Of a stretch of DNA of 64,000 nucleotides, positions 50,480-57,549 are shown in pieces. The stretch spans positions 268,199-332,198 of the forward strand of contig JADNYJ010000025.1 in NCBI GenBank assembly GCA_015501075.1. The letters run 5' to 3'. The notes under the pieces were generated by a model. It had not been told where the DNA came from. It searched no databases and was given only the letters and a program-made list of their open reading frames with translations. The position numbers were made by a program, and so were the translations under genes. Origin of the DNA: Gymnopilus junonius (lineage: Eukaryota; Basidiomycota; Agaricomycetes; Agaricales; Galerinaceae). Position 1 is the stretch's first letter, and each line of letters opens with the position of its first letter.

Positions 50480-51060
50480 GGTCTGGTCCAGTTTTTGGGT
50501 GCCCGAGGACCCTAACCAAGACCGAGACCAGTTAGGTAAAATTAGAAATGTCTAAATAACTGGACCAGACTGCAACTAACTGGTCTTGATCAGTCTTGTG
50601 CAGTTATTTGCAGTTATATAACTGGTTTTAACTGGTTACAGTTATATAACTGGTTTTAACTGGTTACAGTTATAACCAGTTATCAACCAGTTATAACCAG
50701 TTTTTTTGGCATAAATAATTGTCTCATAGTGTAAACTAAATGAATCACAATTTTTACGGTCAAAACGAGCTCAAGAACATCACAAACGGTTGAGAAATGA
50801 TAAAATTAGAGCAGATTCAACAATTTTTGCGAGTATTGCCATAACTTTCTTAATTCTCAACCGAATTTTACGTTTTTTGGGTCGTTCAAAAGCTATAATA
50901 TGTGGGTATAATCATGCAAAATTTCAGAATTTTATGACTGGTTCTAACTGGTTAAGACCAGTTTTAAGCAGTTACAAAAATTCTAAAATTTGGACTAACT
51001 GCTAACCAGACTGTGGTTTATGGTTACAATGGTTAGTATATTTTGCAGTTAGCATCAGTT
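50480..51060. mobile_element. AACTGGTT-rich repetitive element
   Basis: Begins near GTCTGGTCTGGTCCAGTTTT and ends near CTGCTAACCAGAC, with the motif AACTGGTT or its complement AACCAGTT occurring more than a dozen times on both strands. The left 100 bp holds an inverted pair (TCTGGTCCAGTT and AACTGGACCAGA). The outer TIR is short (GTCTGGT) and no target duplication was found, so the classification is uncertain. Confidence 0.4.
50613..50668. repeat. Two identical 28-bp tandem units
   Basis: The 28-bp unit beginning GTTATATAACTGG and ending ACTGGTTACA is perfectly repeated at 50613-50640 and 50641-50668, followed by its partial inverted form. The unit is itself palindromic in part (GTTATATAAC). 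Confidence 0.85.
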
Positions 51061-52594: not shown

Positions 52595-52792
52595 TATTCT
52601 TGTAAGTACACCGCCCTTTCGTATCTGACGGTCAGATATGAAAGGGCTGTGCAATGAACCCTGATGTTGTTGTCAATTGCCTTCCTTCTGGCAAGCGAGA
52701 GCATATGACAGCTGAAGGCAGTGATGTTTTAAGAGGGTTTGTGCTCAGCAACTTACTTAAGCTCCCAGTCAGTGGTTCTCGCCCTATGCGGG

Positions 52793-53731
52793 ATGTTTCC
52801 TTTCCTTCCAACCTCATTTGGCGACATCGTCGCTGCTGCCAGCCTCGCATTTTTGATTTACAAATCCCTCAGTGAAAGCACTGGTGCCTCGTTCGAGTAT
52901 CAATGCCTAACCAGCGAACTGTTTTATTTCCATCGTGCCCTACTATTCCTCGACAAGATACTCTGTGCAACTCTGCCCAGCGAAACTGTAGCTAAGGATA
53001 TCAAGGAAGAAGCCGCCACTTGTCTCAAATTACTGGAGATGTTTTGGGGTCGTATCAAGTCCTACCAGAAGGCTCTTGGTGGAGGAGGAGGATGAAACTC
53101 ATCTTGGCGCAAGATTGGATGGGGTCTTTTCAAGGCGAACGAAGTCGCAGATTTTCGACAGAAGCTCTCTCGACATAAAGAAAATATTACCTTGTTTTTG
53201 AGCACACTTGGAATGTAAGTTTAATGCACAGTCATTGGTGTTATTGCCATAAATGATGTACTCCTCTAGTTCCTTGACTTCCAACACTGCTGAAGATGTT
53301 AGAAAGGGCTTAGCGACATTGGCGTTGATCCAGGCAACAACGAAGGAGATACTTACAGTACAGAAACAACTACCTCAAACCATTGGGTATGACATTGGAA
53401 ATGCGGTGATCCTGAAAGATGCATTTGGGAAATCGTTAACATTGCCAATGGACTTCTGCTTCTCACCAGATGTGCGCCGTTTACCTGCCATTTCTATATG
53501 TACTAAAGTCAAGGATAGGCACTTCATAATACTTTGATGGTCCACTTCAAAGGGAAGATTGGTCAAGGTTACATTGAGCGGCATGAATACCAGATTTCCA
53601 GCGAGGATGGCAAGTCGGTCGTGAAGTCTGATCCCGGTGCATGGCATTTGAGTGTGAAGAAAGGGGCGGTACTCGTCATGAGCATGGAAGTCAGAAGGAT
53701 ACAGCTGAGGTCGGAGTCTGCCATACATTAG
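52793..53731 (+). pseudogene. Fungal ubiquitin-like-domain protein gene, interrupted
   Basis: Start MFPFLPTSFGDIVAAASLAF, followed by LIYKSLSESTGASFEYQCLT, FYFHRALLFLDKILCATLPS and CLKLLEMFWGRIKSYQKALG. After a Gly run comes an in-frame TGA at 53093-53095. The same frame then continues NSSWRKIGWGLFKANEVADF, RQKLSRHKENITLFLSTLG and, past an intron (about 53216-53271), AEDVRKGLATLALIQATTKE and GNAVILKDAFGKSLTLPMDF. A second intron near 53470-53530 leads to VHFKGKIGQGYIERHEYQIS and LSVKKGAVLVMSMEVRR. The order (helical N-domain, then ubiquitin-like fold) is that of a large family of unknown-function agaricomycete proteins. The single TGA suggests recent inactivation or a read error; the start is chosen by family resemblance. 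It is immediately upstream of the intron-like array. Confidence 0.65.
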
Positions 53732-54046
53732 AGGGCCGCATGTCCATGGTGTTACAGGACTAATGTTGGTGTAATGCAGGATGAAGGATGGTTCAAATGG
53801 TGAGCATGATTGGGCCATCTGATTTTTCCTTCCATTTCATAATGTTTGCATTGGAGTCGACGATGCAAACGACATTTCAGTTGGACAGGTGCCACAGAAT
53901 TTCCGCATGAGCCACCTTTACAGGACCTGAGCATTGTGGACTTCTGCAATATTCAGGTTGTGGGGGTTTTACTGGTAAATAACATTACTTTCAGCGATGC
54001 ATTGGCAGTACTCGTTCCTTATTCTCGCCATTTCCTGGGTATCCAG
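53732..54046 (+). other. Segment between the ubiquitin-like gene and the intron-like array
   Basis: An open frame at 53846-54070 runs up to the array and ends with VPYSRHFLGIQT before the donor GTAAGT at 54050. At 53955-53961 there is another AG-GTT-GT arrangement and at 54045-54051 AG-ACA-GT, both following the array rule, so this stretch may contain diverged units or the last normal exon of the host gene. Confidence 0.35.
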
Positions 54047-56084
54047 ACAGTAAGTGGACCCATCATTTAAGCACTTCGGAAAATGCCTCTAACTATCCCA
54101 TCTCACATTTCTAGGATGTACGTGCTTCACCCCTCTTAAATTCCATCTCTCACTTTCTCATTTCCAGGACATATGTGAATGTGTTAGTTGAGCACTAATC
54201 ACCATTCTAATCATTCCATCAATTCCTCGTTTCTAGTTTGTAAGTGACCACATTGGTTAAATAGTGATTGCTCCTCTGGTCGATTTATCTACTCTCTGGT
54301 GTCCAGCGAGTGCGTGACTTTGTCGATCGAGCTCTATATTGTCCCTCTGACCATTCTGGTTTGCCTTTTCATTTGTAGCCTGTATGTAAACTTGTTAATT
54401 GAGTGCCGATTACCCCTCTGACCATTCCATTTCACTTTCTGGTTGCTAGGTCATACGTGAACATGTTATTTGAGCACCCATTTCCACTTACTGTTGCTGC
54501 TTATTTTTTAATTTCCAGAAAGTAGGGTAGACATTTTGATTGAGCACTAATTGCCCACCTGACCATTCTTTCTCTCTTTTTATTTTAATTCTAGGGAGTA
54601 CGTAAATCTGTTAATCGAGCACTGGTAGCTCCTCTAACTCATCTGTCTTACTTCCTTATTTCCAGACTGTATGGCTGCCTTTTAATTGAGCCCTGCTGGC
54701 CTTTCTGACAAATTTGTTGGCTTGTCATTTCTAGGATGTAAGAGAATGTGTTCATTGAACGCTGATCATGCTCTGACAATTTGCTTTTGATTCATCATGT
54801 CTAGGCCATACGTGAACATGCATTGGGCACTGGTGCCCCTCTGATCATTCTGTCTTGCTTCCTCATTTCCAGGAAGTACGTAAAGATGTTCATTGAGCAT
54901 AGATCACCCCTGAGCATTTTGTCTTGCTTTCTAATTTCCAGGTTGTACGTGCACACATTTAATGAGTACTAATAACCCTCTGATCATTTCATCCTGCTTT
55001 CTTATATATAGGATGTACACGAACAAGTTGATTGAGCACTGGCCACCCCTCTGACTGTTCCGTCATGCATTCTTGTTTCCAGTTTGTACGTGAACATCTT
55101 GATTGAGCATGCTGATAACCCCTCTTGACCATCCCTTCTCGCTTTCTCATTTCCAGGCCATACGTGAAATGTTGATTGAAGACTGATCACTGCTCTGATT
55201 ATTTCATGCCAATTCTTCATTTTTAGGCTGTATGTAAACATGTTGGTTGAATCACAATCATGCCTGACCTTTTTTTTTTCCACTTTCATACTCCCAGATG
55301 GCAAGTAAACATATTGACTGAGCACAGATAGAGTTCTTATCGTTTCTATAACCATTCCTTCTCACTTTTTTGTTTCTAGTTAGTACGTGAACTTGTCCTT
55401 TGGATGTGTGTTGCTTCTCTGACTATTCTGTTTCGCTTTCGCAACTTCAGGAAGTACGTGAACTATGTTGAATAAGCACTGTTCGCCCATCTAACCATCC
55501 CATCTTGTTTTCTCACTTCTAGTTTGTACAAGAACATATTGTTTGAGCACTGACTGCCACCTTAACCATTCCTTCTCACTGTCTTATTCCCAGAAAGCAT
55601 GTAAACTCATTTATTAAGCACTAGTGATTGCCCATCTGATCATTCCTTTCTTCTTTCTTATTTCCAGAATGTACATAAAATTATAGTTTTAACTCACTGA
55701 CTGCCTATCTGATCTGCATCTTGCTTTCTCATTTCCAGAAAGTACACGAACTCGTTGATTGAGCACTGATTGCACCTCTGACTATTATGTCTGGCTTTCT
55801 CATTTCTAGGAAGTATGTGAACTTGTTTATTAAGTGACAACCTCCACTCTGACCATTTTTTCTTGCTTCCTCATTGTCAGAGAGTAAGTGAATTTTTTAG
55901 TTGAGGACTTGACAATTGGGTCTTATTTCTCAATTCCAGGAAGTCAGTAATTCGTTAACTGAATATTGAATATTGCTTCAACAGCCTGACGGTTTTGGCT
56001 TGCTTTCTCGATTCCAGGAAGTATGTGACTAGCAGATTACCCTAATATCTATCCTTACCACTTGTCTCTTGCAAAATATAGTGG
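54047..56084 (+). repeat. Tandem array of 29 intron-like units joined by exactly 3 nt
   Basis: Twenty-nine degenerate units follow each other from the donor at 54050 to the AG at 56081. Approximate consensus: start GTACGTGAACATGTT, then ATTGAGCACTGAT, CCCCTCTGACCATTC and a T/C-rich end TTTCTCATTTCCAG. Each unit has a donor-like start, a CTGAC/CTAAC-like branch-point motif and an AG end. Units are 50-79 nt (mostly 65-69). Between the AG of one unit and the start of the next there are always three nucleotides. Those 29 triplets comprise 18 different sequences (GAA five times; GAT, TTT and AAA three each; GCC twice; 13 once), with no stop triplet. Donor dinucleotides: 23 GT, 4 AT (units starting 54171, 54453, 54808, 55160), 2 GC (55301, 55597). 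The orientation is that of the ubiquitin-like gene just upstream. Read as splicing signals this is 29 one-codon exons; whether it is transcribed is unknown. Confidence 0.85.
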
Positions 56085-56202
56085 GTATGTACTTTAATCT
56101 GAGAATAACTCAACTACTCACCTTTCGTTGGCCATCTCCCCTTACCTTTGGGTATGTTCTGAAGCTGAATGTGGCTTTCATTCGCTTACACTTCTCTCCC
56201 AG

Positions 56203-56299
56203 ATCAAATTCTCATAGGCAAAAGCAGAAGCTGAGGAAGCAAGCCGATGTCAGTGTTTCGAAAACTCTGGGCTTGTTTCATTTTAACACCATTCCTTAG
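56203..56299 (+). other. Possible terminal exon after the array
   Basis: The last donor-like site of the array (GTATGT at 56085) could pair with the acceptor TCTCCCAG ending at 56202. One phase then gives an open frame of about 30 codons (SNSHRQKQKLRKQADVSVSK ...) to a stop at 56297-56299; phase 0 would give only four codons to a TAG. Offered as a candidate only. Confidence 0.25.
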
Positions 56300-56885: not shown

Positions 56886-57549
56886 TGGGGCCCCGATGGC
56901 TCAGGTGGCACCATCATGGATTTAGCCCTAGGTGCCTCAAATGGGGGCCGTAAGGTCTTGGGTTCGAACCCCACACTGCTCATGTGGATAAAACAATTTA
57001 GACACCACGTGAGTTTTCAATACCCCCGGGAGACGCCATGTGGTTGGTGACCATGGGAAGGTGAGGCTGCCATTAACTTGGTGTCCCCAAAACATAAAAA
57101 CCCAGGCACTGACCATGTGATGACAAATGGTAATTCTGTTCTCCTCCGGTATTGAAAAGATGCCGGAGCCGAAGACTTAAAATTGGGAGGCTTACTAAGA
57201 TAGCTGTTTGAACCAATGGGGAAAGGTGGCAGTTAAAACTAGACCCTTCACGGGAAACAACCTCCGCCAGGTATGGTAGATTGGGGTTTGCCTTCGGGCT
57301 ACCATGGAGACTAGGCTGGCTGACCTGCTAATGTGGTACTGTCAGGAGCAGAACTGGTATGATCTTGGGGCCAGGTGTCACAGTGCATGGTACTATAATG
57401 AGCATAAAGTCACGGAAAGTCACAATAGTAGTATATGATCATAGGACTATTAAAGTATTACTTAGTACATGCCTATGATGTAATACCAGGGGTATATGCA
57501 TAATAGCAAAAAACTGTCCCCGTACACCAATGAAAAGATTTCATCATCA
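56886..57549 (+). mobile_element. tRNA-derived SINE with 14-bp target-site duplication
   Basis: A Pol III-type head carries an A box TGGCTCAGGTGG (56897-56908) and a perfect B box GGTTCGAACCC (56961-56971) 52 bp apart, as in tRNA-derived SINEs. The element is flanked by an exact 14-bp direct repeat TCTTGTGCATATTC at 56872-56885 and 57550-57563. It ends in a short TCA/CAT simple repeat (TTTCATCATCA), the usual SINE 3' tail type. No open frame. Length 664 bp is long for a SINE, so the 3' part may derive from a partner LINE or be composite. Confidence 0.85.

What the first reader, a model, noticed from the sequence alone, without database searches (positions are those of the whole stretch)
54047..56084. 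Chain of 29 intron-like units separated by invariant, hypervariable three-nucleotide 'exons'
Seen directly: in every one of 29 consecutive units the sequence runs ...AG, three bases, then a donor-like start (GT in 23, GC in 2, AT in 4). Unit length drifts between 50 and 79 nt, so indels are common inside units, yet the gap is never 2, 4 or any other length. Splice-signal positions (pyrimidine tract, AG, donor, CTGAC-like motif) are the best conserved; the triplet is the least conserved (18 different sequences among 29, none a stop). Ordinary minisatellite drift would not conserve exactly the splice signals and the 3-nt spacing while freeing the triplet. Inference: the array is or was spliced, giving either a 29-residue peptide built from one-codon exons, or many isoforms because any donor can pair with any downstream acceptor. 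Single 3-nt microexons are known; I know of no tandem chain like this.
Basis: partly seen in the sequence, partly recalled or inferred. Interest (0 to 1): 0.95.

Follow-up and report, generated by a model that had tools for sequence, protein, structure and literature searches.

The report
Gene tail split into single-codon exons
In a mushroom gene, about 30 intron-like units stand in a row with gaps of exactly one codon between them; a related mushroom carries the same kind of units at the same place, so this looks like an old inherited gene structure, although no RNA has yet shown that it is spliced that way.

Summary
At 54047-56084 there are 29 units plus a 30th triplet, each AG-NNN-(GT/GC/AT). 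Strong acceptor/donor pairs occur 19 times on + at gap 3 and never at gaps 0-2 or 4-12. The chain lies near the 3' end of a ubiquitin-like (ULD_2) gene on a contig that matches Gymnopilus junonius.

The main new evidence is comparative. A predicted Galerina marginata protein reads through one whole unit of consensus length, across a gap compatible with 3 nt, into a second (22 array hits, 22 of 22 on +, best E 1.4e-7; reversed control 0.065). Three other models (Flammula, Galerina, environmental) end in a short motif like a unit start; that evidence is thinner. Triplets are near random (p 0.0015), and no AG lies between branch point and acceptor. Read in order, the triplets weakly resemble relatives' protein tails.

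Against: four AT donors, decayed edges, two in-frame stops in the host gene, and no RNA. Dispersed copies were sought only at limited sensitivity.

Best reading: an inherited chain of spliceable introns with one-codon, frame-neutral exons, possibly fading in this strain.

The parts
52733..53214 (+). first exon frame of the host gene (start ATG lies inside it); in-frame stop at 53093-53095
   Evidence: aligns with relatives
53270..53471 (+). host exon, start of the ULD_2 domain
   Evidence: PF22893 at 2.4e-15 on the spliced protein; same boundaries in the mapped public model
53519..53799 (+). host exon, rest of ULD_2 and the first CxxC of a zinc-ribbon-like pair; in-frame stop at 53729-53731
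53881..54046 (+). exon before the array; supported by relatives to about 53956 (SIVDFCNIQ). 53957-54046 is either exon read-through, as in the public model, or very decayed units
   Evidence: not recognised by the unit model
54047..56084 (+). array: 29 units (3-nt triplet + 50-79-nt intron) and a 30th triplet. Triplets start at 54047 ACA, 54115 GAT, 54168 GAC, 54237 TTT, 54307 CGA, 54379 CCT, 54450 GTC, 54519 AAA, 54595 GGA, 54666 ACT, 54735 GAT, 54805 GCC, 54873 GAA, 54942 GTT, 55012 GAT, 55083 TTT, 55157 GCC, 55227 GCT, 55298 ATG, 55380 TTA, 55451 GAA, 55523 TTT, 55594 AAA, 55668 AAT, 55739 AAA, 55810 GAA, 55881 AGA, 55940 GAA, 56018 GAA, 56082 TGG; in order they read TDDFRPVKGTDAEVDFAAMLEFKNKEREEW
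56085..56217 (+). last intron (inferred), 133 nt, not of the unit family, ends CATAG; an earlier acceptor (CCCAG) would give a frame with an early stop
56218..56286 (+). inferred last exon, AKAEAEEASRCQCFENSGLVSF*, in phase with the triplets; resembles the ends of P0010 (CQAEAEEANRFVEIS) and P0006 (AKADEASRFEEILP)

Best explanation
The array is an old, inherited chain of spliceosomal introns of one family near the 3' end of a ULD_2 gene, separated by one-codon, phase-0 exons. Shown: the anatomy, its place in the gene, the single register of 3, at least two like units at the same place in a Galerina marginata gene model, and conservation patterns expected of introns. Inferred: the units arose by duplication of an intron plus one codon, and in the mRNA up to 30 codons are joined one by one into a C-terminal tail. 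Because each gap is 3 nt, any donor can be joined to any later acceptor and skipping units never shifts the frame, so copy number can drift and single units can decay without harm to the reading frame. In this strain the host gene looks damaged, so the array here may be a fading copy of a structure that works elsewhere.
For: Single register: 19 strong junctions at gap 3 against 0 at 12 other gaps, background about 0.2. Acceptor and donor columns exceed the body (p 0.010, 0.033), triplets fall below it (p 0.0015). No AG between branch A and acceptor in 29 of 29 units: 0 against 7.0 by shuffles (p 0.0004), 0 against 4.5 by a mutation model (p 0.006). Branch-to-acceptor distance 26-28 nt in 26 of 29 units. 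Galerina P0007: its tail has 22 hits in the array, 22 of 22 on +, best E 1.4e-7; reversed tail best 0.065 with 1 array hit. Read by codons, its first unit is 22 codons plus AG = 68 nt, the consensus intron length, and the next residues SLYV fit AG-N-Y-T-GTAYGT, that is a gap of 3, if the Leu codon ends in G as in Gymnopilus. A post hoc motif V[RC]EL[VL], like the translated unit start (consensus VREHVD*; units 55380 and 55810 give the motif exactly), occurs in 4 of 56 relatives and nowhere else in their 15,591 residues, each time in the tail after FRNI: Flammula P0002, Galerina P0007 and P0008, environmental P0015. As mapped here, the public model P0003 already uses four 3-nt exons.
Against: No RNA evidence. 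Four of 29 donors are AT, all after a triplet GNC, so a damaged donor seems to have been copied, which strong selection for splicing should not allow. The host gene has two in-frame stops and lacks the second CxxC seen in P0002, P0008, P0009 and P0010 (P0007's model lacks it too). Array edges are decayed (Spearman 0.52, p 0.004). AG at acceptors was part of the unit definition. The branch motif is not significantly above the body (p 0.12). In the AG-free zone TA is also depleted (24 against 40.7) and CA enriched. Apart from P0007, the relatives' tails do not align to the array: their best window hits lie elsewhere (P0002 0.13, P0010 0.005, P0015 0.019), so they rest on a six-residue motif. The relatives' DNA was not seen. 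The public model may be purely computational.
Confidence: 0.6

Rival explanations
1. Intronic minisatellite: a unit of intron plus 3 bases was duplicated inside what is now one long intron of about 2 kb. The triplets never enter mRNA, and splice motifs persist only because the copies share ancestry.
For: Edge decay as in tandem repeats; copied AT donors; conserved mid-intron columns without known role; few indels expected in the triplets anyway (1.35); host gene damaged here.
Against: Triplets diverge more than the rest of the unit (p 0.0015), which shared ancestry without constraint does not predict; the AG-free zone; like units in Galerina although the host proteins are only 56% identical; the ordered triplets show some resemblance to relatives' tails.
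Confidence: 0.25
2. Relic: the chain was spliced in an ancestor, but in this strain the gene is a pseudogene and the array only decays. This can be true together with the best explanation for the family.
For: Two in-frame stops, no second CxxC, four AT and two GC donors.
Against: Acceptors kept in all 30 places, no AG in the exclusion zone, and apart from the two stops the host exons to 53956 keep one frame with usable splice sites, so any death would be recent.
Confidence: 0.4
3. Introner-like mobile element: a dispersed intron family that has piled up at this spot.
For: Many related, complete introns in one gene; introner-like elements are known in fungi (PMC4457414, abstract and outline seen).
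Against: No copies seen elsewhere: the unit core with up to 3 mismatches is found 5 times forward and 0 times reverse in 58 Mb, all 5 in the array (control 0 and 3); the array as DNA query finds only itself; nhmmer hits with E below 1 lie only in the array among the window and 22 loci. But the pattern finds only 5 of the 29 array units, so diverged copies elsewhere would be missed.
Confidence: 0.07

Closest known systems
Cryptococcus neoformans CNN00420, introns gained by repeat expansion (PMC2395259; passages read)
   Same: Identical introns multiplied inside one gene as part of a tandem repeat that takes in exon ends; splicing there is supported by ESTs.
   Different: Six introns in the gene, a repeat of about 107 nt, recent and variable within the species. 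Here 29 units with one-codon exons, diverged and with like units in another genus.
Single ultra-short exons: 3-bp exon of Drosophila homothorax (PMC7392893), single-nucleotide exon in Arabidopsis (PMC4674806), Trichoderma Xlr2 microexon (PMC11121469); search listings with abstract starts only
   Same: Exons of 1-3 nt have been reported, and a functional microexon in a filamentous fungus.
   Different: Single exons, not chains; flanking introns not known as copies of each other (recalled).
Schistosome micro-exon genes (search listing only)
   Same: Runs of very short symmetrical exons whose skipping keeps the frame; variable products.
   Different: From memory: exons of about 6-36 nt with unrelated introns; other organisms and proteins.
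Introner-like elements of fungi (PMC4457414, abstract and outline seen)
   Same: Related complete introns multiplying in fungal genes.
   Different: Spread over genes; here one locus, at the sensitivity.

Membership tests
Spliceosomal (U2-type) introns | GT/GC donor, branch motif, YAG acceptor, intron-like length | tested here: met
   25 of 29 units have GT or GC donors, 4 have AT; YAG in 29 of 29 (AG part of the unit definition); branch-like motif at a steady distance; 50-79 nt
Spliceosomal (U2-type) introns | removed from RNA | not testable with these tools
   no RNA reads; the public model P0003, as mapped, uses four 3-nt exons but its basis is unknown
Microexons | internal exon of at most about 30 nt that is included in mRNA | tested here: inconclusive
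   size met; inclusion only hinted at by the order of the triplets
Introner-like elements | dispersed near-identical introns in many genes | tested here: inconclusive
   no copy outside the array within 3 mismatches of the core, but that search finds only 5 of 29 array units; searches agree within their limits
Tandem (minisatellite) array | head-to-tail copies, edges more decayed than the middle | tested here: met
   29 copies in one orientation; edge decay p 0.004; Tandem Repeats Finder did not report it at score 40
ULD_2 proteins (PF22893), host gene | profile match above the curated cut-off | tested here: met
   56.9 bits against 24.5

The most novel reading that the evidence does not exclude
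A once continuous C-terminal coding stretch of about 30 codons has been cut after every codon by successive copies of a single intron, and the spliceosome rebuilds the protein tail one codon at a time. The triplets are then the old coding sequence, unrelated to each other, while the introns are copies.
Probability: 0.22. Interest if true: 0.96.

Novelty: new variant of a known kind. Interest (0 to 1): 0.8.

Why it matters
If spliced as drawn, this would be one intron per codon over 30 codons, denser than any case I know of (recalled). It would test how small exons can be when introns lie on both sides, how introns multiply, and whether frame-neutral one-codon cassettes let a gene change its protein tail by changing copy number. 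It also shows how such structures can hide: several gene models of relatives appear to run off into unit sequence.

Tried and rejected
Introner-like element: no dispersed copy seen, at limited sensitivity. Structured RNA or snoRNA in each unit: no consensus structure in the 14 of 29 units given; Rfam shows only two hits below gathering score, E 2.7 and 4.5. Paralogues with an uninterrupted tail in the same genome: none reported, which score only their best candidates; the other two ULD_2 places (L008, L009) give no tblastn match to the host protein at E 1. Linked descent of triplet and intron: triplet distance follows neither the downstream (r -0.01, p 0.55) nor the upstream intron (r 0.04, p 0.30); three variable body columns also correlate only weakly with the rest (mean r 0.07), so this does not separate the models. 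A database search with the P0010 tail found only P0010.

Order of triplets against relatives' tails, all results (uncorrected): P0010 local with the downstream exon 0.002, triplets alone 0.13, anchored 0.003, ungapped score 0.001-0.004, identity counts 0.12-0.42. P0006 local 0.26 and 0.21, anchored 0.14, ungapped 0.02-0.05 with offsets allowed, 0.15 and 0.38 without. P0002 0.03 (aligned to another part of the protein) and 0.025. P0008 0.52-0.56 and 0.47, P0015 0.10-0.11 and 0.39, P0007 0.16, P0009 0.25, sum of five tails 0.038. Sum of P0010 and P0006 anchored 0.0013.

Literature: ten searches. In the listings shown I saw no report of a chain of one-codon exons; that does not prove absence.

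Full report
WHAT IS THERE. The array was read and rebuilt by script. There are 29 units from 54047 to 56081 and a 30th triplet at 56082-56084, all on + and of the form AG-NNN-donor. Donors are 23 GT, 2 GC and 4 AT; introns are 50-79 nt. The consensus intron is GTACGTGAACATGTTGATTGAGCACTGATTACCCCTCTGACCATTCTGTCTTGCTTTCTCATTTCCAG. Units differ at 39% of sites on average, and Tandem Repeats Finder does not report the array. AG and the donor letters were part of how units were delimited, but the units tile without a double-length one.

MORE THAN CHANCE. With a strong-junction pattern, gap 3 occurs 19 times on the array's + strand and the 12 other gaps from 0 to 12 never; background in 271,601 bases of the same genome predicts 0.17-0.29 per gap. 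The longest loose chain is 30, against 6 in background; with a strict GT[AG] donor it is 4, against 2.

WHERE IT SITS. The gene encodes a ULD_2 protein (PF22893, 56.9 bits). Its exons are 52733-53214, 53270-53471, 53519-53799 and 53881-53956 or further. After the array, an inferred last exon (56218-56286) continues in phase and resembles the ends of relatives P0010 and P0006. Contig length and an exact spliced mapping identify the genome as Gymnopilus junonius, protein CPB84DRAFT_1745793 (P0003). As mapped here with the fewest introns, that public model uses four triplets (54115, 54237, 54595, 54942) as 3-nt exons and otherwise reads through units.

RELATIVES. Fifty-six relatives were collected (capped searches). 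The strongest is Galerina marginata P0007. Its tail goes on for a whole unit of 22 codons plus AG (68 nt, the consensus intron length), then residues SLYV that fit a gap of 3 (if the Leu codon ends in G), then a second unit start, and ends where the branch region would supply TGA. It gives 22 hits in the array, 22 of 22 on +, best E 1.4e-7; 39 further weak hits lie elsewhere in the window; the reversed tail has a best E of 0.065. Thinner: a motif chosen after seeing the tails, V[RC]EL[VL], occurs in 4 of the 56 and only in the tail after FRNI: Flammula alnicola P0002 (ends VRELVD), Galerina P0007 and P0008 (ends VRELVY), environmental P0015. The Gymnopilus consensus unit start reads VREHVD*, and units 55380 and 55810 read VRELV and VCELVY*. 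The tails of P0002, P0008, P0010 and P0015 do not otherwise align to the array: their best window hits lie elsewhere. Gymnopilus and Galerina are in Galerinaceae, Flammula in Strophariaceae. So a tandem pair exists outside Gymnopilus with good support; presence in Flammula is likely but rests on a short motif.

CONSERVATION. Mean pairwise identity: triplets 0.325, body 0.577, donor 0.712, branch 0.678, acceptor 0.829 (permutation p: triplets low 0.0015, donor 0.033, acceptor 0.010, branch 0.12). Between branch A and acceptor no unit holds AG: 0 against 7.0 by shuffles and 0 against 4.5 by a model that re-places each unit's own substitutions (p 0.006; TA is also low and CA high there). Of 32 indel events none lies in the triplet columns, where 1.35 are expected, so the fixed gap alone is weak evidence. 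Third positions of the triplets differ from the host's codons (p 0.013); first and second do not (0.11, 0.35).

DO THE TRIPLETS SPELL A PROTEIN? Shuffling their order, the right end (KEREEW before AKAEAEEASR) fits P0010 (RRREKW before CQAEAEEANR) at p 0.001-0.004 in anchored score tests, but not by identity counts (0.12-0.42) nor for the triplets alone in a free local test (0.13). P0006 gives 0.02-0.38 depending on test and offset; P0002 0.025; P0007, P0008, P0009 and P0015 nothing; the sum over five tails is 0.038. Uncorrected and modest, these lean towards real codons. P0010 runs in one open frame across places where Gymnopilus has introns, so it may come from spliced RNA (inference).

HOW IT MOST LIKELY WORKS. 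The gaps are one codon each and in phase with the exons on both sides, so any donor joined to any later acceptor keeps the frame. Units can be gained, lost or skipped without a frameshift. Duplication of intron plus one codon is the simplest origin; edge decay (Spearman 0.52, p 0.004) fits a tandem array, and saturated triplets inside more constrained introns fit old age. The alternative origin, serial copying of one intron into a continuous coding stretch, explains unrelated triplets directly and is my most novel open reading.

AGAINST. No RNA. AT donors in 4 of 29, all after GNC, look like one damaged unit that was copied. Two in-frame stops (53093-53095, 53729-53731) and no second CxxC suggest that this strain's gene is dying or dead. 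Part of the mid-intron sequence is conserved without known role, and 14 units given showed no shared structure. Dispersed copies are not excluded for diverged sequence, since the pattern search recovers only 5 of 29 array units.

VERDICT. A real, ordered structure, not chance, with like units in another genus. Whether the codons reach the protein is open and easy to test.

Noticed in passing
53093-53095 and 53729-53731: In-frame stop codons inside well conserved host exons; as mapped, the public model avoids both by introns that remove conserved protein parts.
   Followed up: partly
TTGATTGAGCA, e.g. 55099-55109: A mid-intron motif conserved about as well as the donor and compatible with the Galerina tail (LIEH), with no predicted structure.
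   Followed up: partly
about 56890-57000: Possible tRNA-derived SINE: GATGGCTCAGGTGGCA ... GGGTTCGAACCCC (box motifs recalled); ARAGORN with the bacterial setting reports no tRNA.
   Followed up: no
L008 1-917 and 1102-2018; L008 against L009: A perfect 917-base inverted repeat, and about 6.5 kb at 98.6-99.2% identity between two contigs that each hold another ULD_2 match with a stop inside; maybe two haplotypes.
   Followed up: no
50611-50702: A perfect 28-nt tandem repeat (50611-50674) overlapping 10-nt repeats of CAGTTATAAC (50667-50702).
   Followed up: no
P0002, P0007, P0008, P0015: Protein predictions whose C-termini appear to be translated intron sequence; well supported for P0007, by a short motif for the others.
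   Followed up: yes
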